Source: an uncultured Aquimarina sp. (GTDB taxonomy: Bacteria; Bacteroidota; Bacteroidia; Flavobacteriales; Flavobacteriaceae). From it: a DNA stretch of 64,000 bases. A program made the translations under genes and the position numbers. The stretch lies in assembly GCF_947495315.1 (NCBI RefSeq), contig NZ_CANLYD010000001.1:1-64000 (forward strand). Reading direction: 5' to 3'. How positions within the stretch are numbered: position 1 is the stretch's first letter; the number at the start of each line of letters is the position of its first letter. Of this stretch, positions 25,279-45,842 are shown in pieces. The notes under the pieces are model-generated. The model had not been told where the DNA came from and ran no database searches. It worked only from the letters and a program-made list of their open reading frames with translations.

Positions 25279-27660
25279 ATGAAATCTAATTACATTTTTA
25301 CCTTATTAATTGCAATATGTTTCTTTTCTTTTACATCTATTGCGCAGACTGCTAGAGTTCAAGCAATTCATAATTCGGCTGATGCAGCCGCTGCTATAGT
25401 TGATGTGTATATTTTTACATCCGTCTCAGGGGATCAACTATTACTAGAAGATTTTGCATTTAGAACTGCTTCTACATTTGTAGATGCTCCTGCCGGCATA
25501 CCCATTACATTAAAAGTAACGGTTCCTGATGGTTCTCCTACTACTCCTGTATATGAAATTACAACAACACTCTCGCCGGGTTCTACTTATATATTAGTGG
25601 CTGATGGTATCGTTAGCGCTTCTGGTTATATGCCAGCACAACCTTTCGGTATCCAGGTGTATGATATGGGAAGAGAAGCTGCTTCTACTTCGGGGAATAC
25701 AGATGTATTAGTGCATCACGGAGCAACAGATGCACCTACTGTAGATGTAAATTTACAATCAGGAGGAGCTCCATTAGTTGATGATGTATCCTATACAGAA
25801 TTTGCAGGTTATTTAGAACTTCCAACAGATGATTACGCTATTAATGTTTCTACTTCAGATGGCGCCACTATTGTAAAAGCATATGATGCTCCTTTAGCTA
25901 CTTTAGGTCTTACTGATTCTGCTGTTACAGTGGTGGCAAGTGGATTTTTAGATCCTTCAATGAATAGTAATGGAGCTGCTTTTGGATTGTATGCAGCTAC
26001 ACCAGCTGGAGGTGATTTAGTAGCATTGCCAGAAAGTTCTGCTCGTGTTCAAGTAATTCATAATTCTGCTGATGCTGCTGCGACCTCCGTAGATGTATAT
26101 CTAAATGATGCTATGTTGATAGATGATTTTGAATTCAGGACTGCTTCTCCTTTTATCGATGCTCCTGCTGGAGTTCCATTAAGTATTGAGGTAGCTCCAG
26201 GAACAAGTACTTCTTCTATGGATGCTATTTATGAATTACCCGCTACCTTAGTTTCTGGAGAAACGTATATTCTTGTAGCTGATGGTATCGTTAGCGCTTC
26301 TGGTTATATGCCAGCACAACCTTTCGGTATCCAGGTGTATGCTATGGGAAGAGAAGCTGCTTCCATTTCTGGGAATACGGATGTATTAGTGCATCACGGA
26401 GCAACAGATGCACCTACTGTAGATGTAAATTTACAATCAGGAGGAGCTCCATTAGTTGATGATGTTTCATATACAGAATTTGCAGGTTATTTAGAACTTC
26501 AAACAGATGATTACGCTATTAATGTTTCTACTTCAGATGGTGCCACTATTGTAAAAGCATATGATGCTCCTTTGGCTACTTTAGGTCTTACAGATTCTGC
26601 TGTTACAGTGGTAGCAAGTGGGTTTTTAGATCCTTCAATGAATAGCAATGGAGCTGCTTTTGGATTATATGCAGCTACACCAGCTGGAGGTGATTTAGTA
26701 GCATTGCCAGAAAGTTCTGCTCGTGTTCAAGTAATTCATAATTCTGCTGACGCTGCTGCGACCTCTGTAGATGTATATCTAAATGATGCTATGTTGATAG
26801 ATGATTTTGCATTCAGAACTGCTTCTCCTTTTATCGATGCTCCTGCTGGAGTTCCATTAAGTATTGAGGTAGCTCCAGGAACAAGTACTTCTTCTATGGA
26901 TGCTATTTATGAATTACCAGCTACACTAGTTTCTGGAGAAACGTATATTCTTATAGCCGATGGTATCGTTAGTGCCTCTGGTTATATGCCAACGCAACTT
27001 TTCGGTATAGAGGTTTATGCTATGGGAAGAGAAGCTGCTTCAACTTCTGGGAATACGGATGTATTAGTGCATCACGGTGCTACAGATGCACCTACTGTAG
27101 ATGTAAATTTACAATCAGGAGGAAGTCCATTAGTTGATGATGTATCCTATACAGAATTTGCAGGTTATTTAGAACTTCCAACAGATGATTATCAAATCAA
27201 TATTTCTACTGCAGATGGTGCTACTATTGTACAAGGATATGATGCTCCTTTAGCATCTCTTAGCTTAGACGACGCTGCAATTACAGTAGTAGCAAGTGGG
27301 TTTTTAGATCCTTCAATGAATAGTAATGGAGCTGCTTTTGGATTATGGGTAGCTCTAGCAGCGGGAGGACCTTTGGTTGAGTTACCAACAAATACATTGA
27401 GTATCAGAGAATTTGCAAATGTTGATCAATTAGCTGTATATCCAAATCCAAGTATAGATGGTGATTTATTTATTTCATTACCTCAATTAACCGAAGATAT
27501 AGATGCGTTCGTATATGATATATCTGGTAGAGAAGTAATCAAAACAGTACTTTCTAATGAGCTTACAAAATTGGATGTACGTTCTTTAAATACCGGATTT
27601 TACATTATTACATTAAGGAAAGGGAACGATTCTTTCTCAGTAAAAATAGCTGTTAATTAA
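25279..27660 (+). CDS. DUF4397 repeat protein with T9SS type A sorting domain
   Basis: 793 residues. A signal peptide (about 1-23, ending IAQ) is followed by three long units at about 25-254, 255-480 and 481-705. Each unit is a double DUF4397-like beta-sandwich: the first half opens ARVQxIHNSADAAA, the second VLVHHGATDAPTVDV. The last ~75 residues hold a Por secretion tail, with VYPNPSIDGDLFISLP, YDISGREV and LNTGFYIITL. The protein should be exported by T9SS, cut at the tail and anchored or released. DUF4397 domains occur in cell-surface proteins of unknown function. The units are nearly identical at the DNA level, so copy number may vary between strains. Confidence 0.92.
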   Translation: MKSNYIFTLLIAICFFSFTSIAQTARVQAIHNSADAAAAIVDVYIFTSVSGDQLLLEDFAFRTASTFVDAPAGIPITLKVTVPDGSPTTPVYEITTTLSPGSTYILVADGIVSASGYMPAQPFGIQVYDMGREAASTSGNTDVLVHHGATDAPTVDVNLQSGGAPLVDDVSYTEFAGYLELPTDDYAINVSTSDGATIVKAYDAPLATLGLTDSAVTVVASGFLDPSMNSNGAAFGLYAATPAGGDLVALPESSARVQVIHNSADAAATSVDVYLNDAMLIDDFEFRTASPFIDAPAGVPLSIEVAPGTSTSSMDAIYELPATLVSGETYILVADGIVSASGYMPAQPFGIQVYAMGREAASISGNTDVLVHHGATDAPTVDVNLQSGGAPLVDDVSYTEFAGYLELQTDDYAINVSTSDGATIVKAYDAPLATLGLTDSAVTVVASGFLDPSMNSNGAAFGLYAATPAGGDLVALPESSARVQVIHNSADAAATSVDVYLNDAMLIDDFAFRTASPFIDAPAGVPLSIEVAPGTSTSSMDAIYELPATLVSGETYILIADGIVSASGYMPTQLFGIEVYAMGREAASTSGNTDVLVHHGATDAPTVDVNLQSGGSPLVDDVSYTEFAGYLELPTDDYQINISTADGATIVQGYDAPLASLSLDDAAITVVASGFLDPSMNSNGAAFGLWVALAAGGPLVELPTNTLSIREFANVDQLAVYPNPSIDGDLFISLPQLTEDIDAFVYDISGREVIKTVLSNELTKLDVRSLNTGFYIITLRKGNDSFSVKIAVN
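25351..27393 (+). repeat. Three tandem ~680-690 bp coding repeats
   Basis: Units start at 25351, 26041 and 26719 (spacings 690 and 678 bp). The 678-bp unit 2 and unit 3 differ at few bases over their first 250 bp, and the segment from GCTGATGGTATCGTTAG onward is also nearly the same in unit 1. Unit 3 diverges near its end. This suggests recent duplication or gene conversion. Confidence 0.9.
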
Positions 27661-28105
27661 TCGAATTTCATTCTGAATTAGTACTTGAAAACCTTCGCTA
27701 TCTTTATTTATGGCGAGGGTTTTATATTGATGTCTATTGTTTTAGAGAAAGAAATACTAAGTAACTATGGAAATATTTCTTTTGGTCAATTTTCTAACTA
27801 TGAATCGTTTGGCTTTGCTTATCGATACGGTTTTGTTGAGTTAGAGATAGAAAGATATACAATTTTGTTTATTGATATTTAGGTGAGACTTGGTTAAATT
27901 ACGGGAATTATACATTTGAGATAGGAGCCAATGATTCTTAGGAACAATGAATAAAGCTTTCTATAAGATTAGTTCAGGATTAATAAGTTTTTAAATGAAT
28001 TCGATTCTACTGTTTGCTATTTAATTAGTTTCATGTCTTTGATCTAAAAATATAGTTTTTAAATACGGATAAACTATATTGAAAATTTAAAGACAATTCA
28101 GTTAA
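27661..28105. other. 445-bp intergenic region, possibly with coding debris
   Basis: It contains the terminator at 27688-27723. A 65-codon frame at 27685-27882 starts inside that terminator and is probably chance. Around 27885-27975 the plus strand can be read as GETWLNYGNYTFEIGANDS, stop, EQ, stop, IKLSIRLVQ, which might be the decayed end of a beta-sandwich protein. I cannot name it. Confidence 0.45.
27688..27723 (+). terminator. Terminator of the DUF4397 gene
   Basis: Stem AAACCTTCGC (27688-27697) with GCGAGGGTTT (27713-27722), one G-T wobble, ending in a short T-run. Confidence 0.75.
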
Positions 28106-37751: not shown

Positions 37752-37798
37752 TCCGTAACCCTACGTATAATGATACAATACAGTTATATGTATCTTGT
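37752..37798 (+). promoter_or_regulatory. Operator copy 1 and -7 position, kinase promoter
   Basis: The dyad TCCGTA-ACCC-TACGTA (37752-37767) is the reverse complement of copy 2 with one mismatch. The -7-like TATCTTGT begins at 37791, 24 bp after the dyad. It is only a partial match to TAnnTTTG. The kinase start codon lies 13 bp beyond. Confidence 0.72.
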
Positions 37799-37810
37799 AC
37801 ATATTAAATT

Positions 37811-39868
37811 ATGTGTATGTCTAGATTAAAAATACTCCTATATTTTGCTATTATTTTTCCTTTTTTACTGATATCCCAGGAAAAGGAAGGTATGATTCGG
37901 TTGATGAATATGCTAGAAAAAGAAACTAATGAAACTATAAAACTAGAAATTTTAGATTCCTTAAGTGATAATATTTATCCATTTCACAGAACAGATCAGG
38001 CATTTTATCATAAAAATTATCCTAAATATTGTTTAAAATGTATTGACTTAGCGAATAGACTGGAGGACTTTGATCTTGCAGCAAAAAAAACCGCTCAATT
38101 AAGCAATCATTATTTGCAAGTTATTGATAAACCTGATTCGGCATTGATAATAATAGAAAATTCCCTTAGGGATAGTAGTGGCATAAAAAACAAAAGTAAC
38201 CTAGGACATTTACTGGTAAAAAGAGGAGGGGTCTATTATGAGATAGACGATTTGAAAAAAGCAATAATTGAGTACGAAGCAGCGCAAAAGATGTATCAAA
38301 AAAGTAGAGATACTATCTATGAAGCTGATGCAGTTTATTTTTCAGGACAAACTCACGAGCGTTTAGGAAACCTGACACAAGCAATTCTTAAATACCAATC
38401 TGCTTATGAATTGTATGCTGCAATGAAAGATACATCTTATATGGCATTTGCTAAGATAGGGGTTTCAGGAATTTTTAGTCAATTATATCTATTGGATGAA
38501 TCTTTTGAAGAAAGACAAGAAATCAAAACATTACTGGAGCAGAGCAAAAATAAAGACTTTGGGGTTTTATCCGAATTACACCTAAATGATGCACGTGATT
38601 TTGTGAAAAAGAAAGAGTATAAAGCAGAAGAAAAATCACTTTTAGAAGCGTTCCGATTGTCTAAATATAATTCTAACTTATATAATCAAACTTCTAGGTT
38701 GGCTGCATATCTAGTTGAGTTTTATGCTAAGCAAAATCGTTTAGAAATTGCTGAAAAATACTTGGATACCTTAAATTCTAATAAGAGTTTTATACAAAGT
38801 AACTATGGGCAGTTATTCTACTTACAAGCCCAAGGAGCATTAAAAATAGCTCAAGGTAAGTATAATGAAGCCATTCCTTTTTTTGAAAAAAAATTAATAC
38901 TAAGAAAGAATTCTAATGATGTAAGGGGTGAGCTTTTTGTACAAAAAGATTTGTACAAAGCCTATAAATCGAATGAAGAGCTAACAAAGGCTTTAAACCA
39001 TTTAGAGGTTTATGATAAACTAAAAGATTCTGTTTATAATCTGGATAGATCTAATAGCGTCATTTATTATAAAACACTGTATGAAACTGAGAAAAAGGAG
39101 AGTGAAATACAAATTCAAAAAGCAAATATAGAAGCTTTAGAAACTATAAATAAGACTCGCAATACTCTATTTATCTTTGTTGTTCTAGGGTTGATTTTGT
39201 TATTCTTTATTATTTATTTGATCCGTAATCGAATGTTTTTAGTCAGAAACAAAAAAACACAACAATCTTTTTTACAAGAACTTTTACAAACTCAGGAGCG
39301 AGTAAGCAAACGTATTTCTAAAGATTTACATGATAGTGTTGGTCAAAGTCTATTATTGGTTAAAAATAAATTAGTTCAGAATAATGATGAAAAATCTGCT
39401 GTTATCGTAGATGAGGTAATTGATGAAGTACGTGAGATATCCAGAACTCTACATCCTTTTAAGTTAGAAGAAATAGGTCTTACAGGAACTATACAAAGTA
39501 GTGTGGATGCAATTGATGAAAACTACGATATCTTTATCTCTACTAAGATTGATAATATCGATGGTATTTTTGACCAGGAAAAAGAAATCAATATATATAG
39601 ACTGGTACAAGAAAGTTTTAATAATATACTGAAGCATTCTAATGCTACTTCGGCAGAGATCAAAATAGATAATAATTCTAATGAGATAAGAATATCAATT
39701 ACTGATAATGGCAAAGGATTTGATATAGAAAGCGAAAGAATTATTCATTCTAAAATTGGGCTTAAAACATTAAGTGAAAGATCAAAGTTTTTAAGAGCTA
39801 CTTTTAGTATTGTATCCGATCTGAATAAAGGAACTAAATTGACTTTTAATATCCCTAAAAATGTTTAA
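37811..39868 (+). CDS. TPR-containing sensor histidine kinase (HisKA_3 type)
   Basis: 685 residues from the ATG at 37811; a second ATG at 37817 is equally good. A signal peptide (ending LLISQ) leads into a periplasmic domain of TPR-like helices (about 60-430; for example YYEIDDLKKAIIEYEAAQKMYQ). One membrane helix lies at about 452-472 (LFIFVVLGLILLFFIIYLI). The cytosolic part has the HisKA_3 dimerization domain with phosphoacceptor H507 in KDLHDSVGQSL, and an HATPase domain with NNILKHSNA and DNGKGFD. It resembles NarX/LiaS-like kinases with a TPR sensor. It overlaps the response regulator gene by 8 bp, and its promoter carries the TACGTA dyad. Confidence 0.93.
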   Translation: MCMSRLKILLYFAIIFPFLLISQEKEGMIRLMNMLEKETNETIKLEILDSLSDNIYPFHRTDQAFYHKNYPKYCLKCIDLANRLEDFDLAAKKTAQLSNHYLQVIDKPDSALIIIENSLRDSSGIKNKSNLGHLLVKRGGVYYEIDDLKKAIIEYEAAQKMYQKSRDTIYEADAVYFSGQTHERLGNLTQAILKYQSAYELYAAMKDTSYMAFAKIGVSGIFSQLYLLDESFEERQEIKTLLEQSKNKDFGVLSELHLNDARDFVKKKEYKAEEKSLLEAFRLSKYNSNLYNQTSRLAAYLVEFYAKQNRLEIAEKYLDTLNSNKSFIQSNYGQLFYLQAQGALKIAQGKYNEAIPFFEKKLILRKNSNDVRGELFVQKDLYKAYKSNEELTKALNHLEVYDKLKDSVYNLDRSNSVIYYKTLYETEKKESEIQIQKANIEALETINKTRNTLFIFVVLGLILLFFIIYLIRNRMFLVRNKKTQQSFLQELLQTQERVSKRISKDLHDSVGQSLLLVKNKLVQNNDEKSAVIVDEVIDEVREISRTLHPFKLEEIGLTGTIQSSVDAIDENYDIFISTKIDNIDGIFDQEKEINIYRLVQESFNNILKHSNATSAEIKIDNNSNEIRISITDNGKGFDIESERIIHSKIGLKTLSERSKFLRATFSIVSDLNKGTKLTFNIPKNV

Positions 39869-40493
39869 ACCTGATATATTAATAGCAGATGATCATCCTT
39901 TATTGTTAAAAGGATTAGAGGAATTCTTAAAAGAACGAAACCATAAAGTCATAGCGACTTGTTCTGATGGATTATCCGCATATAATAGTATTATAAAAGA
40001 AAAACCTGACATAGCTATATTGGATATAGACATGCCACATTTGTCGGGAATTGATATTGCAAAAAAATGTAAGCGACATCAGGTTTCTACCAAGATAGTG
40101 TTGATTACATTACATAAAGAGAAAAAATTGTACGAGAATGCGGTTCAATACAATATCCATGGATATTTGTTAAAGGAATTTGCGTTAAGTGAAATTGAAG
40201 CATGTATTCAGAGTTTGTCAAAGGGCAACCCGTATTTTAGTGAAAGGATTTATAAACGTTTTACTAATAGGACACAAAGTGATAATTCAATAAAAGACCT
40301 TACACCTTCAGAAGTAAAAATACTTAAACGAATAGCTGCTGAGATGACAAGTTCCGAGATTGCAGAGGCTCTTAGCATATCTGTTCGTACGGTAGAAAAA
40401 CATCGTGCTAACATCATAAGAAAACTAGGTTTGGAACAAAAATCTAACGCTTTACTAATATGGTCTCAGCAAAATAAAGAGTCATTGGTATAA
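39861..40493 (+). CDS. NarL/LuxR-family response regulator
   Basis: 210 residues. The receiver domain (about 3-120) has the acidic pair D10/D11, phosphoacceptor D55 in AILDIDMP, a threonine in VLITLH and the lysine in YLLKEF. The C-terminal helix-turn-helix is TPSEVKILKRIAAEMTSSEI then LSISVRTVEKHRANIIRKL. The start overlaps the kinase gene by 8 bp, so the pair is cotranslated. It should bind DNA as a phosphorylated dimer. The TACGTA-N4-TACGTA dyad in the three nearby promoters is the obvious candidate site (TACxxxT heptamers are typical for NarL). Confidence 0.95.
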   Translation: MFKPDILIADDHPLLLKGLEEFLKERNHKVIATCSDGLSAYNSIIKEKPDIAILDIDMPHLSGIDIAKKCKRHQVSTKIVLITLHKEKKLYENAVQYNIHGYLLKEFALSEIEACIQSLSKGNPYFSERIYKRFTNRTQSDNSIKDLTPSEVKILKRIAAEMTSSEIAEALSISVRTVEKHRANIIRKLGLEQKSNALLIWSQQNKESLV

Positions 40494-40512
40494 ATTTTCT
40501 GTAATTCGTATT

Positions 40513-40559
40513 TACGTAGGGTTACGTATTTCATTAAGATGTAAAGATGAATACTTTTG
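40513..40559 (+). promoter_or_regulatory. Operator copy 2 and -7 element, first lectin operon
   Basis: TACGTA-GGGT-TACGTA (40513-40528), then 23 bp, then TACTTTTG (40552-40559), an exact TAnnTTTG. The start codon is 28 bp further. No -33 TTTG lies at the usual place, as expected of an activator-dependent promoter. Confidence 0.82.
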
Positions 40560-40587
40560 ATCTGTTCATCCCAAAATCTTATTGAAA

Positions 40588-42024
40588 ATGAAATACATTA
40601 CTTCGATTATTTTTTATCTATTACCAGCAATTTTAGTAGCAAGCCATGCACAGACAGTGGTTAATGGTTTTGCAATGAATAATGATGCAAGGCATATAAG
40701 AGATAATATTTTTGAACTTACTCCAGCTACGAATACAAAAAATGGTCAAATTTGGTTTACAGAAACGCTTGATTTAAGTAAAGACTTTACGATTGACGCG
40801 ATATTGAATTTTGGATCTAAAGGTTCTAATGGAGCGGATGGTATTACTTTTACCTTACAAAATGAATGCCTGAGTGCTGGTAGTGGAGGTGGTGGACTTG
40901 GTATTTCTGGAGTCACTCCATCTTTCATTGTAGAATTTGACACTTTTAGAAATTTTCAAACACTAAGCGATCCGGCAGAAGATCATCTCGCAATGTTTAA
41001 AAATGGGGGTTTAGATCATGATAGTAGTAATCTTTTAAGCAACTACTTGGGTTCCAATACTGTAAAAGTTACCAATCTTGAAGATGGAACCAACAAAACA
41101 ATCAAAATTACATGGGTAGCATCAACGAAGACTTTGGAGGTTTTTTTACAAAGCACGTTACGTTTAAGATTTATAGGTGACATAGCAGGCATTATTGGAA
41201 ATACTGTTACCTACTGGGGTTTTACAGCATCTACAGGAGCTTCAAATAATAGACAAAGAGTAGAAGTTATAAATTTACCTGATAATCGTGTGACTTTATC
41301 AGATCAAAAGATTTGTGAGGGAGAATCTATTCAAAACGGATTAATTGGGGTAAGTAATCCTGTATGGTCACCAGAAACAGGTGTAAGTGATATTAATATT
41401 CTAAATCCTATTTTTTCTCCAACAGATACTACACAATATACAGTAAGTTATCAGGATAATTGTAATGGTATTACCTTGAATCAATCTTTTACAATTGTTG
41501 TAGATCCAAAACCAAGCACATCCGAAATCAATGGATCAGATAATATAATTTGTAATACAAACTTCCCCGAAATTTATAGCGTAACTAATACTACAGGAAG
41601 TAACTATAATTGGTCTGTTCCTGAAGGAGCTACCATTTTGTCAGGGCAAGGGTCAAATGAAATTGAAGTTGAGTTTAATGAAAATTCCGGAAATATAAGT
41701 GTTATAGAAACTAATTCAATAGGCTGTACAGGGGATGCAAAAACTATTGAAGTTTCGTGCTTAACATTGAGTACAGTAGATATAGCATTGAATGATTTTA
41801 GTGTTTACCCTAATCCCGTAACTAACAATAGACTTTCTGTTCAGAGTGATAAAATAATAAATGTTATAGATCTTATTACAATAAGTGGACAAATTATCCG
41901 GACTATTAAGAACCCGAAATTAGTTAACAATACATATACCATTTCTAATCTTATTAGTGGTTTATACTTTATACGAATTACAAGCAATAAGAAACAGGTA
42001 TTCCAAAAGATCTTAGTGAATTAA
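40588..42024 (+). CDS. Secreted L-type lectin-like protein with PKD-like domain and T9SS type A tail
   Basis: 478 residues from the ATG at 40588; an in-frame TTG six bases earlier is ignored. The signal peptide ends about AHAQ. Residues about 25-225 match bacterial L-type lectin domains: GSNGADGITFTLQN, then GLGISGVTPSFIVEFDTFRN, the acidic metal-binding patch DPAEDHLAMF, and YWGFTASTGASNN. Two Ig/PKD-like segments follow (about 240-400). The last ~75 residues are a Por secretion tail (FSVYPNPVTNNRLSV, LISGLYFIRITS). The protein should sit at the cell surface and bind a glycan. It begins the operon downstream of operator copy 2. A close paralogue lies at 43826. Confidence 0.9.
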   Translation: MKYITSIIFYLLPAILVASHAQTVVNGFAMNNDARHIRDNIFELTPATNTKNGQIWFTETLDLSKDFTIDAILNFGSKGSNGADGITFTLQNECLSAGSGGGGLGISGVTPSFIVEFDTFRNFQTLSDPAEDHLAMFKNGGLDHDSSNLLSNYLGSNTVKVTNLEDGTNKTIKITWVASTKTLEVFLQSTLRLRFIGDIAGIIGNTVTYWGFTASTGASNNRQRVEVINLPDNRVTLSDQKICEGESIQNGLIGVSNPVWSPETGVSDINILNPIFSPTDTTQYTVSYQDNCNGITLNQSFTIVVDPKPSTSEINGSDNIICNTNFPEIYSVTNTTGSNYNWSVPEGATILSGQGSNEIEVEFNENSGNISVIETNSIGCTGDAKTIEVSCLTLSTVDIALNDFSVYPNPVTNNRLSVQSDKIINVIDLITISGQIIRTIKNPKLVNNTYTISNLISGLYFIRITSNKKQVFQKILVN

Positions 42025-42066
42025 ACAAATCATTATTTACTACTCAGTTTTCTAATAATTTAAAAA

Positions 42067-42561
42067 ATGAAACTAATGAATATCAATAAAAAAGTATTCC
42101 TGATCATTTTCTCTACAATGCTTTTAGAGATAGCGGCACAAGAAGCTGTAGTAACGTTAGGTGCTGAAATAACTGATGTTGGAGGAAGTATTAGTTATAC
42201 AATAGGTCAAATAGTTTATATACCAATGTCTGGAACTAGCGGTTCTATTGTCCCTGGAGTTCAGCAAAGTGTAGAAATTAATGTACTAGATGTTGATGAT
42301 ATAGAAAAACCGGATATTGAGATTACTGTTTATCCAAACCCAATGCATGATCATTTGATTATAGAGTTACAGACTTTTAAACAAGAGTTTGACTATCTAC
42401 TATATGATACATTAGGAAGAGAGATTAAATCTAATAAAATACAGGAAGATAAAACTGTAATTTCCTTACAAGATTTTCCCGATGGTACTTATTTTTTAAA
42501 AGTGTACTCTTTTAATAAAACAATGCGAACATTTCAAATAATTAAAGCATCTAAAAACTAA
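42067..42561 (+). CDS. Short secreted protein with T9SS type A sorting domain
   Basis: 164 residues. Signal peptide to about IAAQ. Residues 25-80 hold a glycine-rich pattern, GGSISYTIGQIVY then GVQQSVEI, found in many small Bacteroidota secreted proteins. Residues about 88-160 are a Por secretion tail (VYPNPMHDHLIIEL, LQDFPDGTYFLKVYS). There is no catalytic or binding domain beyond that, so it may be a structural surface component. It lies 42 bp after the lectin gene and 6 bp before the next gene. Confidence 0.83.
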   Translation: MKLMNINKKVFLIIFSTMLLEIAAQEAVVTLGAEITDVGGSISYTIGQIVYIPMSGTSGSIVPGVQQSVEINVLDVDDIEKPDIEITVYPNPMHDHLIIELQTFKQEFDYLLYDTLGREIKSNKIQEDKTVISLQDFPDGTYFLKVYSFNKTMRTFQIIKASKN

Positions 42562-42567
42562 AATTAC

Positions 42568-43356
42568 ATGAAAAACCGATACAGTATATTAGTTGCATTA
42601 CTTATAGCTACTATTAATTGGGCTCAAATTCCTGAAAAAATGAGTTACCAGGCCATTCTAAGAAGTGCAGATGACATACCGCTGGATAATCAATCTATTG
42701 GAATGCGGTTAAGTATTCTGAATGATAGTCCTACAGGCACTGCAGTATATTCAGAAACCCATACGTTAATGACTAATAAAAATGGTTTAATAAGTTTAGA
42801 AATAGGAACAGGTACTATTGTAAACGGAGTTTTTGCAACGATAGATTGGTCTTTGGGAACCTATTTTATCCAAACTGAAACCGATCTTACTGGAGGAACA
42901 AATTATACAATTACAGGAACTAGCCAATTATTAAGTGTTCCTTATGCCTTACACGCTAAAACGGTAGAAGAACCCATTTATACTATTGGTTTGAATAGAG
43001 ATTTGGGCGGCTACGTATTTTATGTTACTCCTAATGGAAAACATGGATTGGTTGCAGCTTTGAGAGATCAAAGTGACAGTATTACTTGGTATAGAGCAAA
43101 TAACGTATGTAGCAATTCAGAAAACCATGATAGTAATGGTCAACAATTTACAGATTGGCGTTTGCCAACAATAAATGAATTGTACATGATGTTCCTTAAA
43201 CGATCAGAAATAGGGGCTTTTGATTCCTTTTGGTATTGGAGTTCAACAGAAAGTACCGCAGAAAAAGCATTAGGTTTTTATTTTGGTGGTAGTGGAGGTT
43301 CCGGTGATCCAAATAAGGCTATCTCATACAGAGTACGCTGTATTCGTTCTTTCTGA
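42568..43356 (+). CDS. Secreted protein with tail-fibre-like N-terminus and DUF1566/Lcl-like C-terminus
   Basis: 262 residues. After a signal peptide the segment PEKMSYQAILRSADD, then SLEIGTGTIVNGVF, and SVPYALHAKTVEE form a beta-rich N-terminal module often placed before variable C-terminal domains in Bacteroidota. Residues about 145-262 resemble DUF1566/Lcl: GGYVFYVTPNGKHGL, DWRLPTINELYMM, YWSSTES, YRVRCIRSF. Similar folds bind ligands on the cell surface of other bacteria. No T9SS tail is seen. It is 6 bp after the preceding gene and ends the first lectin operon just before operator copy 3. Confidence 0.8.
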   Translation: MKNRYSILVALLIATINWAQIPEKMSYQAILRSADDIPLDNQSIGMRLSILNDSPTGTAVYSETHTLMTNKNGLISLEIGTGTIVNGVFATIDWSLGTYFIQTETDLTGGTNYTITGTSQLLSVPYALHAKTVEEPIYTIGLNRDLGGYVFYVTPNGKHGLVAALRDQSDSITWYRANNVCSNSENHDSNGQQFTDWRLPTINELYMMFLKRSEIGAFDSFWYWSSTESTAEKALGFYFGGSGGSGDPNKAISYRVRCIRSF

Positions 43357-43366
43357 AAACTGTAAT

Positions 43367-43413
43367 TACGTAAGGCTACGTATGTTTTAGCATGCGGTTA
43401 ACATTTAGTTTTG
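43367..43413 (+). promoter_or_regulatory. Operator copy 3 and -7 element, second lectin operon
   Basis: TACGTA-AGGC-TACGTA (43367-43382) lies 10 bp after the previous stop codon. TAGTTTTG (43406-43413) is an exact TAnnTTTG and starts 24 bp after the dyad. The start codon follows 27 bp later. Confidence 0.82.
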
Positions 43414-43440: not shown

Positions 43441-43785
43441 ATGAAATTAAAACAACTTTCTTTAGCAACACTTGCGTTATCTTTTATATATGATGAGGCT
43501 CAAGTTCTCCATGCAGAAAGGAATGCCTTAATTGACCTGTTTAATACTACAAACATATATAATTGGATTGATACTACGAATTGGAATACCAATGAATCTG
43601 TAATCTGGACAGGTGTAACAGTTAGCAATAATAGTGTTGTTTCACTAGGTTTTGAGAGTGATAATCTCAACGCTTCTCTTAGAGATTTACTCAATGTAAA
43701 GGATATTGAATTTAGCAACAATGAAGTATTTGGAAGAATCTTAAGCTCTTTTGAAAACCTGAAAACCTTGTTTGATATTGCATGA
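43441..43785 (+). CDS. Truncated leucine-rich-repeat-like secreted protein (possible remnant)
   Basis: 114 residues. The N-terminus resembles the cap of bacterial LRR surface proteins: AERNALIDLFNTTN, then NWIDTTNWNT, WTGVTVSNNSVVSLGF, and two incomplete repeats (DNLNASLRDLLNVKDIEFSNNEVFG). Full-length relatives continue with many repeats and often a T9SS tail; here the frame simply ends. The signal peptide (LSLATLALSFIYDEAQV) also looks damaged. The piece sits right behind a well-formed regulated promoter, so it is transcribed but may be a relic, or it may serve as a short leader gene of the second lectin operon. Confidence 0.65.
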   Translation: MKLKQLSLATLALSFIYDEAQVLHAERNALIDLFNTTNIYNWIDTTNWNTNESVIWTGVTVSNNSVVSLGFESDNLNASLRDLLNVKDIEFSNNEVFGRILSSFENLKTLFDIA

Positions 43786-43825: not shown

Positions 43826-44815
43826 ATGAAAAATACATTGATGTTAACTTTTTTATTAGTCTTATTGTCTTTGTCTTATAGGGTAGAAGCACAGTTTATC
43901 TTAAAAAACAGTGCGATTCCATTAGGTAATGACTGTTACCAATTAACACCCGACGAAAAATCAACAACAGGTCAAATTTGGAATGAAAAGAAGCTTGATT
44001 TAGAAAAAGATTTTACTATTGAAGCTACCATCAATTTAGGGGCGAAAAATAGTGGAGCCGACGGTATCACTTTTATACTTCAGAGTAGTTGTTTGTTTGA
44101 AGGAAGTGGTGCAGGAGGTATAGGTGTTTCTGGAATTAAGCCTTCGTTTATTGTTGAGTTTGATACGTTCAGAAATAGCTCACAAGGTGACCCACCTGAT
44201 GAATCTGGCAAAGATCATATCGCTATGTTCAGAAATGGTGTAATAAAACACAATAGTTTTTATCACCTAAATAATGATGTAGGATCCATAAGGACTGTTG
44301 TGGTTGATGATATGGAAAATGGAGAGGATATTCCTGTCAGGTTTACTTGGATTGCGTTGGATAAATCATTAGGTATTTATTATATGGATTCGTTAATTCT
44401 AAGATATAAAGTGAATATGTTTAATGATATTTTTGGAGATGAAACATTAGTCTATTGGGGGTTTACAGCTGGAACTGGAGGGTCCAGCAACAAGCAATCT
44501 GTGTGTATTACTTCCTTTCCAAGAGACGAAGCACTTGTAGATAACAATACTTGTAGTTTAAGTATTGAGAATTTCAGAGAAAAGAGTATAGATATATTTC
44601 CCAATCCGGTTAGAAACATATTGCATGTCAATTTTAAAAGCGAAATTATTACTCCTTCTCTAGAGCTTTTTGATTTAAACGGAAAGCAGATAAAAGTTGT
44701 AAATAATATGTTGTTAAACAACAATATCTCATTGAATTCATTAGCATCCGGAACCTATTTTATCAAAATTAGAAACCAGCAAAGAGTTATTATAAACAAA
44801 ATTCTGAAACTATAG
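43826..44815 (+). CDS. Second secreted L-type lectin-like protein with T9SS type A tail
   Basis: 329 residues, paralogous to the lectin at 40588. It has the same order: signal peptide (VEAQ), TTGQIWNEKKLDLEKDFTIEA, SGADGITFILQ, GGIGVSGIKPSFIVEFDTFRN, the acidic KDHIAMF patch, and YWGFTAGTGGSSN. It lacks the PKD-like middle of its paralogue. The C-terminal ~70 residues are a Por secretion tail (DIFPNPVRNILHVNF, LASGTYFIKI). The two lectins therefore share the binding domain but differ in spacer length. It is 40 bp after the LRR remnant and probably in its operon. Confidence 0.88.
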   Translation: MKNTLMLTFLLVLLSLSYRVEAQFILKNSAIPLGNDCYQLTPDEKSTTGQIWNEKKLDLEKDFTIEATINLGAKNSGADGITFILQSSCLFEGSGAGGIGVSGIKPSFIVEFDTFRNSSQGDPPDESGKDHIAMFRNGVIKHNSFYHLNNDVGSIRTVVVDDMENGEDIPVRFTWIALDKSLGIYYMDSLILRYKVNMFNDIFGDETLVYWGFTAGTGGSSNKQSVCITSFPRDEALVDNNTCSLSIENFREKSIDIFPNPVRNILHVNFKSEIITPSLELFDLNGKQIKVVNNMLLNNNISLNSLASGTYFIKIRNQQRVIINKILKL

Positions 44816-44885
44816 TATTTAGTATAAAGCCTATCAATAATAAATGATTGAAAACATCTTAAAAAATAATTTTAATACCTACATT

Positions 44886-45842
44886 ATGAAAACAAGAATA
44901 CAAATTTTGACAATTTTGTTAATGATCAGTTCCATAGGTTTTTCCCAAATCCAACCTTTTGGACATTTAACAATCTTCTCTGAGGATGGTGATAAGTTTA
45001 TTTTAATACTAAATGGAGAACAAATAAATGAAGAACCACAAACTAATCTACGAGTGGAAGAATTAATAAACCCCCATTATAATGCAAAAATAATTTTTGA
45101 AGATGAAGGTTTATTATCAATAAGTAAAAACTTTTTGAGAATAGCAGATGTAGATGGAATTATGAGTGATGTAACCTATAAGGTGAGAAAGAAAAGAGGA
45201 AAATTGAAGTTGAGTTATTTTTCCAGTGTTCCCGTAGTCGAAGGCTTTGTGGTGCCCTCAAATGTCTATGTTACCAGATATGGACATTCTAATCCTCCAG
45301 TACAAGAAATAATTACTCAAGAAGAAGGAAGTATTACCCAAACAACCACTACATCCTCTACTGTAGGAATAGATGCTAATGTAAATTTACCGGGAATTAA
45401 TGTAAATGTTTCGGTCAATGATCCATTGGGATCCACTACAATTAAAGAAACAACTATAGTTACTACAACGGACGGTTATGTTGATGATAGTGAACATGGA
45501 AGTTATTATAATGATGAACGAAATAATGGATCAAGGGGTTGTAAAAACAAAAGTAAAATGTGGCAACAAGATTTTAAAGATGCATTAAGCTCTATAAAAA
45601 ATATAGGCTACGATCAAACAAAACTTGAAACAGCTAAACAAATCGTTTCCGGTAATTGCATGAGTGCAATACAGATTAAGCATATCTGTGATTTATTCGG
45701 ATACGAGGCTTCTAAATTAGATTTTGCTAAATACGCTTTCGATTATTGCGTAGAGCCTAATAATTATTTTAAAGTGCATAAAACTTTTAATGCTACAACC
45801 AGTATCAATGAACTAAATGAATATATCCAAAATAGCTATTAA
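44886..45842 (+). CDS. Secreted DUF4476 protein
   Basis: 318 residues from the ATG at 44886 (MKTRIQILTILLM); the longer frame from 44844 lacks a signal peptide. After the signal peptide (ending FSQ) a beta-rich region with an HLTIFSEDGDKFILILNG motif (about 20-120) is followed by a low-complexity TTTTS stretch and an NVNVSVNDP segment. Residues about 220-315 hold a DUF4476 domain: QDFKDALSSIKNIGYDQTKLE, then LDFAKYAFDYCVEPNNYFKV. DUF4476 proteins are common, secreted and of unknown function in this phylum. It is last in the second lectin operon; no terminator is obvious. Confidence 0.83.
   Translation: MKTRIQILTILLMISSIGFSQIQPFGHLTIFSEDGDKFILILNGEQINEEPQTNLRVEELINPHYNAKIIFEDEGLLSISKNFLRIADVDGIMSDVTYKVRKKRGKLKLSYFSSVPVVEGFVVPSNVYVTRYGHSNPPVQEIITQEEGSITQTTTTSSTVGIDANVNLPGINVNVSVNDPLGSTTIKETTIVTTTDGYVDDSEHGSYYNDERNNGSRGCKNKSKMWQQDFKDALSSIKNIGYDQTKLETAKQIVSGNCMSAIQIKHICDLFGYEASKLDFAKYAFDYCVEPNNYFKVHKTFNATTSINELNEYIQNSY

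What the first reader, a model, noticed from the sequence alone, without database searches (positions are those of the whole stretch)
37752..43413. A shared dyad, TACGTA-N4-TACGTA, at the same phase in three promoters around a TPR kinase/NarL regulator pair
Seen: copy 1 (37752-37767, TCCGTA-ACCC-TACGTA, the reverse complement of copy 2 with one mismatch), copy 2 (40513-40528, TACGTA-GGGT-TACGTA) and copy 3 (43367-43382, TACGTA-AGGC-TACGTA). In all three the dyad ends exactly 24 bp before the start of the -7 element: TATCTTGT at 37791, TACTTTTG at 40552, TAGTTTTG at 43406 (the last two are exact TAnnTTTG). Sequences between dyad and -7 element are otherwise unrelated. With TAnnTTTG placed at about -11, the centre is near -42, a class II activator position. 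I found no other paired copy in the window. Inference: the NarL-type regulator at 39861 binds this site and activates itself and two secreted-protein operons.
Basis: partly seen in the sequence, partly recalled or inferred. Interest (0 to 1): 0.87.

Follow-up and report, generated by a model that had tools for sequence, protein, structure and literature searches.

The report
Regulator operator with swappable payload genes

Summary
The dyad TACGTA-N4-TACGTA is real: the genome's only two exact copies lie here, each 23 bp before an exact TAnnTTTG box. All 21 regulator orthologues examined in the genus (58-100 % identity, own included) have it (0-1 mismatch) 3-240 bp behind the regulator's stop, phased at 23 bp; 20 boxes are exact. 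In 397 Flavobacteriaceae genomes 73 of 131 composites use gap 23; 40 of the 41 genomes holding one encode the regulator family, against 175 of 397 overall (p 9e-15; other gaps 14 of 30, p 0.85). I read it as a NarL-type 7-2-7 operator near -43.5, likely bound by the neighbouring regulator; binding is untested. Copy 2 is conserved; copy 1 (autoregulation) has a weak box and is absent from 18 relatives; copy 3 is local. The payload varies: secreted lectins here; elsewhere lone T9SS sorting domains, 31-47-aa hydrophobic peptides, or predicted small RNAs without Rfam match (model hits in 101 of 397 genomes). A fourth likely site here precedes a 31-aa peptide. Reader partly supported; new variant of a known kind.

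The parts
37752..37767 (+). copy 1 of the dyad (one mismatch), before the kinase gene; not found in 18 relatives
37791..37798 (+). weak -7-like box TATCTTGT of copy 1 (2 mismatches to TAnnTTTG)
37811..39868 (+). TPR / HisKA_3 / HATPase_c sensor kinase, 685 aa
   Evidence: Pfam
39861..40493 (+). NarL-type response regulator (receiver + GerE), 210 aa; likely binder of the dyads
   Evidence: Pfam; orthologue and co-occurrence tests
40386..40406 (+). RTVEKHR of the presumed recognition helix (Lys180)
   Evidence: alignment; helix assignment by analogy with NarL (recalled)
40513..40528 (+). copy 2, exact dyad; the conserved operator behind the regulator gene
40552..40559 (+). -7 box TACTTTTG of copy 2
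40582..42024 (+). L-type lectin + PKD + T9SS sorting tail; start more likely ATG 40588, signal peptide by eye
   Evidence: Pfam; start codon choice inferred
42067..42561 (+). 164-aa protein with T9SS sorting tail
   Evidence: Pfam; 36 % identical over 151 positions to a homologue behind the same kind of operator in L168
42568..43356 (+). Lcl_C-domain protein, 262 aa
   Evidence: Pfam; 46 % identical over 208 positions to the L168 homologue
43367..43382 (+). copy 3, exact dyad
43406..43413 (+). -7 box TAGTTTTG of copy 3
43441..43785 (+). 114-aa ORF without Pfam or NCBIfam match, first gene behind copy 3
43826..44815 (+). second L-type lectin with T9SS sorting tail
   Evidence: Pfam
44844..45842 (+). 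DUF4476 protein, possible last gene of the copy-3 unit
   Evidence: Pfam; operon membership inferred

Best explanation
The 16-bp dyad is likely the operator of the neighbouring NarL-type response regulator, which, once phosphorylated, would bind it as a dimer at about -43.5 and activate the predicted sigma-A promoter whose TAnnTTTG box lies 23 bp further on. Shown: the dyads, their phase, their linkage to the regulator gene and the co-occurrence of regulator and phased dyad. Inferred: (1) the TPR kinase senses an unknown signal and phosphorylates the regulator, probably at Asp55; (2) a dimer binds TACGTAN-NN-NTACGTA as a NarL-type 7-2-7 site (TAC-N10-GTA, 16 bp), with Lys180 a candidate specificity residue; (3) bound there it takes the place of a -33 element and contacts RNA polymerase (class II activation); (4) in this strain it turns on a lectin / T9SS-tail / Lcl_C unit (copy 2), a second lectin unit (copy 3) and a 31-aa hydrophobic peptide on contig 15, and perhaps weakly its own kinase-regulator genes (copy 1). 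The regulator gene and the operator directly behind it appear to travel as one module, and what stands behind the operator differs between species: secreted proteins, lone T9SS sorting domains without signal peptide, small hydrophobic peptides or predicted tandem small RNAs.
For: The two exact composites are the only ones in the genome. 21 of 21 orthologues have a dyad with <=1 mismatch and gap 23 (20 exact boxes, 1 with one mismatch); 5 of 7 regulators at 43-51 % identity have a nearby dyad with <=1 mismatch (3 of them phased), 0 of 4 below 41 %. Gap histogram: 23 of 34 sites in 66 genus genomes and 73 of 131 in 397 family genomes at gap 23; next in the family 13 at 31 and 10 at 22. Regulator / gap-23 co-occurrence: 16 of 16 in the genus (p 2.9e-10), 40 of 41 in the family (p 9e-15); gap 22: 7 of 9 (p 0.05); other gaps only: 14 of 30 (p 0.85). 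Of the 29 best regulator loci outside the host's own genome, picked by protein similarity alone, 27 have a dyad-like site with a box-like sequence at 23 (13 of 29 by a stricter cut); of 29 dyads found there by a degenerate pattern 24 have the box at 23 and none at any other gap from 10 to 40. Picked by the RNA model alone, 27 of the 30 best small-RNA loci have the dyad (<=2 mismatches) at exactly -51 from the RNA core, and 27 of 30 have the regulator gene just upstream. A Lys followed by His and Arg/Lys in the presumed recognition helix is kept in the dyad-linked regulators aligned except L205 (the same gene as L235); five regulators without an adjacent dyad read N, T, T, T or V there. NarL's palindromic site TACCCCTAAAGGGGTA and its napF and yeaR positions (-40 to -49, -38 to -47) are from passages of PMC4549865; the -12 to -5 position of TAnnTTTG from passages of PMC9723704.
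Against: No binding, transcript or phosphorylation data. Copy 1 is not found in 18 relatives and its phase is weak. One-mismatch dyads and 3-mismatch composites are at control level genome-wide. One genome with a gap-23 site lacks the regulator at the cut-off used (G442). L149 and L150 have the Lys but no nearby dyad; L152 and L046 have a dyad without the phased box; L205 has the dyad but Thr. Only 6 of the 62 fetched family loci with a gap-23 site have a strong regulator match right beside it, so which regulator acts at the unlinked sites is open. Genomes share ancestry, so the Fisher values overstate independence; the loci compared were the best-scoring ones, not random.
Confidence: 0.85

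Rival explanations
1. Another DNA-binding protein (for example a paralogous LuxR-type regulator or a repressor) uses the dyad, and the neighbouring regulator is only a linked bystander.
For: 56 of 62 fetched family loci with a gap-23 site have no strong regulator match right beside it; TACGTA-N4-TACGTA also occurs with gaps 31 and 10, mostly in genomes that lack this regulator family at the cut-off, so some other protein probably reads a similar dyad.
Against: Linkage and co-occurrence are specific for gap 23 and for this regulator family.
Confidence: 0.1
2. The dyad is part of the promoter itself (an extended recognition element for an alternative sigma factor or a polymerase contact) and no regulator binds it.
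For: Rigid 23-bp phase.
Against: The box is the ordinary sigma-A TAnnTTTG (PMC9723704, passages); the element is a palindrome of NarL geometry; it is rare (two exact composites in this genome) and tied to genomes with the regulator.
Confidence: 0.03
3. Only copy 2 is functional; copies 1 and 3 arose by duplication or chance in this strain and do little.
For: Copy 1 is not found in 18 relatives and has a weak box; no second phased operator (<=1 mismatch in dyad and in box) was seen in the 16 inspected orthologous loci of relatives.
Against: Copy 3 is exact in dyad, gap and box; L168 of another genus has a second, nearly perfect operator before its own secreted-protein unit.
Confidence: 0.25
4. 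Chance similarity of palindromic hexamers.
For: One-mismatch dyads are no commoner genome-wide than the reversed control.
Against: Conservation in 21 of 21 orthologues and the gap-23 peak.
Confidence: 0.01

Closest known systems
Escherichia coli NarL 7-2-7 operators at class-II-like positions (napF, yeaR)
   Same: 16-bp palindrome TAC-N10-GTA; NarL/LuxR-type regulator with a HisKA_3 kinase; site just upstream of the promoter core (PMC4549865, passages).
   Different: Inner bases (TACGTAN against NarL's TACCCCT), recognition helix (EKHR against NarL's KVHV, recalled), the Bacteroidota TAnnTTTG promoter, and the tie of the operator to the 3' side of the regulator gene.
Vibrio Qrr system (response regulator driving several small RNA genes; recalled)
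   Same: In other genera a response regulator gene is followed by several predicted tandem small-RNA genes, each with its own dyad.
   Different: NarL-type instead of sigma-54-type regulator (recalled for Vibrio); the RNAs match no Rfam family at the gathering score; in this genome the payload is secreted proteins and no such RNA was found with the filter used.
Flavobacterium psychrophilum sRNA Rfp18 (PMC9723704)
   Same: Structured small RNA conserved in related species, linked to secreted proteases (passages).
   Different: The passages name a third stem-loop and no two-component link; whether it belongs to the family found here could not be tested.
PorX/PorY regulation of the T9SS (recalled)
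   Same: Two-component control touching T9SS cargo in Bacteroidota.
   Different: The PorX NCBIfam model matches the regulator here only over residues 5-135 (55.8 bits against a cut-off of 300).

Membership tests
NarL/LuxR-type response regulators | Receiver domain plus GerE HTH | tested here: met
   Pfam Response_reg 2.5e-26 and GerE 1.7e-13; NarL among PDB matches, 1a04, E 1.4e-19
NarL/LuxR-type response regulators | HisKA_3-type kinase next door | tested here: met
   HisKA_3 + HATPase_c, gene overlapping the regulator gene
NarL/LuxR-type response regulators | Phosphorylation-dependent activation | not testable with these tools
   Asp55 in ILDIDMP read by eye
E. coli NarL (NCBIfam equivalog) | Score above the curated cut-off | tested here: not met
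   NF007935 NarL 108 bits, cut-off 250; best model NF052445 MctR 142.3, cut-off 300
7-2-7 operator | Inverted heptamers 2 bp apart (16 bp, TAC-N10-GTA) | tested here: met
   Copies 2 and 3; in 18 distinct orthologue composites the outer TA and GTA are invariant and the outer C is kept in 17; NarL site. Because TACGTA is itself a palindrome, sequence alone cannot tell inverted from direct half-sites.
7-2-7 operator | Bound by a regulator dimer | not testable with these tools
   -
Class II activator site | Fixed position near -42 overlapping the -35/-33 region | tested here: met
   Dyad -51 to -36 if TAnnTTTG is -12 to -5; gap-23 peak; start sites not mapped
Class II activator site | Activation of transcription | not testable with these tools
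   -
T9SS cargo (downstream genes) | Por_Secre_tail sorting domain | tested here: met
   Genes at 40582, 42067 and 43826; not in those at 42568, 43441 and 44844
Autoregulated two-component operon | Conserved operator before the kinase-regulator genes | tested here: not met
   0 of 18 relatives
Known Rfam small RNA (relatives' payload) | Match at the gathering score | tested here: not met
   Only tRNAs in 10 loci; only below-threshold matches in the lax run on one locus

The most novel reading that the evidence does not exclude
Flavobacteriaceae carry a portable regulator-plus-operator module: a NarL-type response regulator whose own 7-2-7 operator promoter sits directly behind its gene and fires an exchangeable payload. 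The payloads include a new family of tandem ~75-nt small RNAs (up to nine copies), a new family of 31-47-aa membrane microproteins, many with a conserved LN-x-x-NYFVS end and many read from leaderless mRNAs, and, in Aquimarina, a stand-alone T9SS sorting domain without signal peptide that acts in the cytoplasm; this genome has rewired the same switch to secreted lectins.
Probability: 0.65. Interest if true: 0.88.

Novelty: new variant of a known kind. Interest (0 to 1): 0.78.

Why it matters
Sequence comparison alone gives one regulator family (found in 175 of 397 sampled family genomes), its likely operator, its promoter geometry and candidate targets, so binding and activation can be tested at once in a group where few such operators are known (recalled). 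It also points to predicted small RNAs and small peptides without a family model, and to one switch being re-used for different outputs. My queries on the motif and the RNA core found no paper describing it: searches returned none, and none of the 8 papers listed of 387 holds TACGTA. Only open-licence PubMed Central papers are held.

Tried and rejected
Autoregulation as a rule: rejected. Chance: rejected for copies 2 and 3. Loose one-mismatch scan as evidence: rejected, equal to its reversed control. All gap-23 sites lying beside a regulator: rejected, 6 of 62 fetched family loci do; 2 of 18 control loci (other gaps) also have the regulator beside a dyad, with an altered box. Rfam identity of the small RNA: none at the gathering score; the lax run on one locus gave only below-threshold matches. 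Small RNA in this genome: no match with the filter used; a window match at 27645-27728 has E 0.17 and was dropped. No decoy search was run for the RNA model, so weak hits among the 101 genomes may be ordinary terminators. Identity with Rfp18: could not be tested. Automatic consensus folding found only the terminator hairpin in common; hairpin I rests on single folds, 11 of 12. dN/dS: 75 of 91 pairs usable (0<dS<2), median 0.29; 16 dropped as undefined or saturated. The payload of 4 of the 20 non-own orthologues (G048, G057, G060, G080) was not inspected. Family-wide scans used exact patterns, so counts are lower bounds. Of 59 genes picked behind gap-23 sites I carried 48 into A3, leaving out short or doubtful ORFs and exchanging one for a smaller ORF (L222), and scanned 40 singly for defence models.
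Full report
Setting. The window lies at the start of contig 1 of a 6.53-Mb genome. Around the finding lie an ABC1-kinase gene (36220), a TPR/HisKA_3 sensor kinase (37811), a NarL-type regulator (39861), then a lectin-PKD-T9SS protein, a T9SS-tail protein, an Lcl_C protein, a 114-aa ORF without family, a second lectin-T9SS protein and a DUF4476 protein.

Observation. Copies 2 and 3 are the only exact dyads in the whole genome and the only exact dyad-N23-TAnnTTTG composites. At one mismatch the genome holds 14 dyads, as many as the reversed control, and at three mismatches 19 composites against 22 for the control, so looser copies mean nothing without more evidence. Copy 1 has such evidence only from its place; the spacing of its box is not significant by itself.

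Orthologues. Searching 66 genomes of the genus with the regulator gave 23 positive at E<=1e-40. I examined 32 regulators: 21 at 58-100 % identity, 7 at 43-51 %, 4 below 41 %. All 21 have a dyad with 0 (14) or 1 (7) mismatches 3-240 bp behind the regulator's stop with the box at 23 bp; 20 boxes are exact TAnnTTTG, one is off by one. Five of the 7 have a dyad with at most one mismatch, three of them phased; none of the 4 has one. In the 18 distinct composites the second half-site is invariant and the first nearly so; between dyad and box the information is highest in the first six positions (TGTT-T), with smaller peaks further on. The dyad before the kinase is found in none of 18 relatives (15 orthologous, 3 paralogous loci; one had only 209 bp to search).

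Genus and family. The exact pattern with a free gap of 10-40 gave 34 sites in 66 genus genomes, 23 at gap 23, and 131 sites in 397 family genomes, 73 at gap 23. All 16 genus genomes with a gap-23 site are among the 23 regulator-positive ones (p 2.9e-10). In the family 40 of 41 gap-23 genomes have the regulator at E<=1e-38 (175 of 397 overall; p 9e-15); for gap 22 it is 7 of 9 (p 0.05); genomes with only other gaps show no association (14 of 30, p 0.85). These are not independent lineages.

Regulator loci of other genomes. The 29 best loci besides the own one (54-59 % identity) were chosen by protein similarity only; 27 have a dyad-like site, mostly TACGTG-N4-YACGTA, with a box-like sequence at 23 (13 by a strict cut; L277 and L289 have none). 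Of 29 dyads found there by the degenerate pattern 24 have the box at 23 and none at any other gap. In 14 loci an ATG follows the box by 4 nt, that is at the predicted +1, and opens a peptide of 43-47 aa; counting later starts too, 18 of 29 loci have, by eye, a peptide ending in an LN-x-x-NYFVS-like stretch behind one hydrophobic segment. No transmembrane predictor was run. None of the four peptides tested (two of these, two of the Aquimarina second-site kind) matches an NCBIfam model, and a protein search with one of them found a single near-identical relative.

Small RNAs. In L177, L179, L205, L206 and L227 one to four dyads follow the regulator with no ORF of 45 aa or more between them. The stretches behind the boxes begin with a GCTATTAA core and end in a terminator-like hairpin; 11 of the 12 taken also fold a first hairpin, and 11 of 14 consensus pairs of the terminator show compensatory change. 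A covariance model of these 12 sequences, from five genomes and without promoter, has matches at E<=1e-3 in 101 of 397 genomes and 71 of 237 genera, the training genomes included, with up to nine matches in one genome, in a tandem row; its E-values are rough and no decoy was searched. Of the 30 best loci 27 have the dyad (<=2 mismatches) at exactly -51 from the RNA core and two more are one base off; leaving out loci of the training genomes, 23 of 26. The regulator gene lies upstream in 27 of 30. In the five loci named, asparaginase and TatD genes lie upstream, and in three of them a ~147-aa protein before the regulator was seen; Pfam was run on one example of each (retropepsin-like protease for L179). 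No Rfam family fits at the gathering score. No transcript has been seen.

Payload in Aquimarina. In 14 of 16 inspected relatives the operator precedes a 76-90-aa ORF that looks like a T9SS sorting domain and nothing else (Pfam confirmed on the four tested; L097's starts at a non-ATG codon), with no signal peptide by eye and an in-frame stop 6-90 nt upstream; median dN/dS 0.29 over 75 of 91 pairs. Database copies are named T9SS type A sorting domain proteins in three of five hits. The other two loci, L090 and L098, lack it. Five relatives have a second site before a 32-34-aa hydrophobic peptide. This genome has the same locus on contig 15: CCCGTATTTCCACGTA, 23 bp, TACATTTG, then after 4 nt a 31-aa ORF, beside the orthologue of the same 442-aa gene. 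It is one of sixteen 3-mismatch hits and is kept only for its synteny. In G109, another genus, a TPR kinase-regulator pair, the dyad behind it and a second dyad precede homologues of the window's 164-aa and Lcl_C proteins.

Mechanism. The dyad has the length and outer bases of the NarL 7-2-7 site and, with TAnnTTTG at -12 to -5, spans -51 to -36, close to where NarL sites lie at napF and yeaR (both papers seen as passages only). A Lys-His-Arg/Lys in the presumed recognition helix runs with the dyad, with exceptions L205, L149 and L150. Binding, phosphorylation and activation are inferred.

Literature. Searches returned no paper; of 387 papers I saw the 8 listed, none with the motif. Searches were listings, of which I opened only PMC9723704 and PMC4549865, as passages. 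This covers only the held open-licence papers.

Noticed in passing
L172, L183, L214, L220, L226, L159, L218 (genes behind gap-23 sites in other genera): Seven of 40 genes scanned singly match PADLOC defence models at E<=1e-10 (a type IV restriction enzyme, PDC-S37, PD-Lambda-1, PDC-S60, an AAA ATPase; L159 patatin and L218 HTH are weak cases), against one member of 48 random genes from control loci. The regulator may command phage defence genes in some genera.
   Followed up: partly
L216:1551-5915 and the dyad upstream of it: An exact dyad with a near-consensus box stands before a Cas9-like gene (RuvC_III, HNH_4, Cas9_a).
   Followed up: partly
L198, L199, L207, L208 and the gap-31/gap-10 sites: A second class of TACGTA-N4-TACGTA sites with gaps 31 and 10, often with a third TACGTA near the box, mostly in genomes without this regulator at the cut-off; another protein probably reads it.
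   Followed up: no
L084, L091: Regulators at 45-47 % identity whose dyad precedes a 244-249-aa protein; L084's has a sub-threshold AraC-type HTH match, L091's none. L084 has a further dyad before a LytTR regulator.
   Followed up: partly
L098, about 320 bp behind the dyad start: A 45-aa ORF that looks by eye like a double-glycine leader peptide of a small modified peptide.
   Followed up: no
window 43441-43785: 114-aa ORF that looks by eye like a truncated leucine-rich-repeat protein; no Pfam or NCBIfam match.
   Followed up: no
G000:C11:5409-5455 (L017, L105): Composite with 2 mismatches and an exact box, just under 90 bp before a 320-aa gene; may be chance. The same region holds three evenly spaced 83-aa ORFs with near-identical ends.
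   Followed up: no
L183, L185, L186 (G441) and L218-L221 (G425): Closely similar operator-promoters repeated before unrelated genes within one genome (8 and 6 gap-23 sites), as if the promoter were copied with the genes.
   Followed up: no
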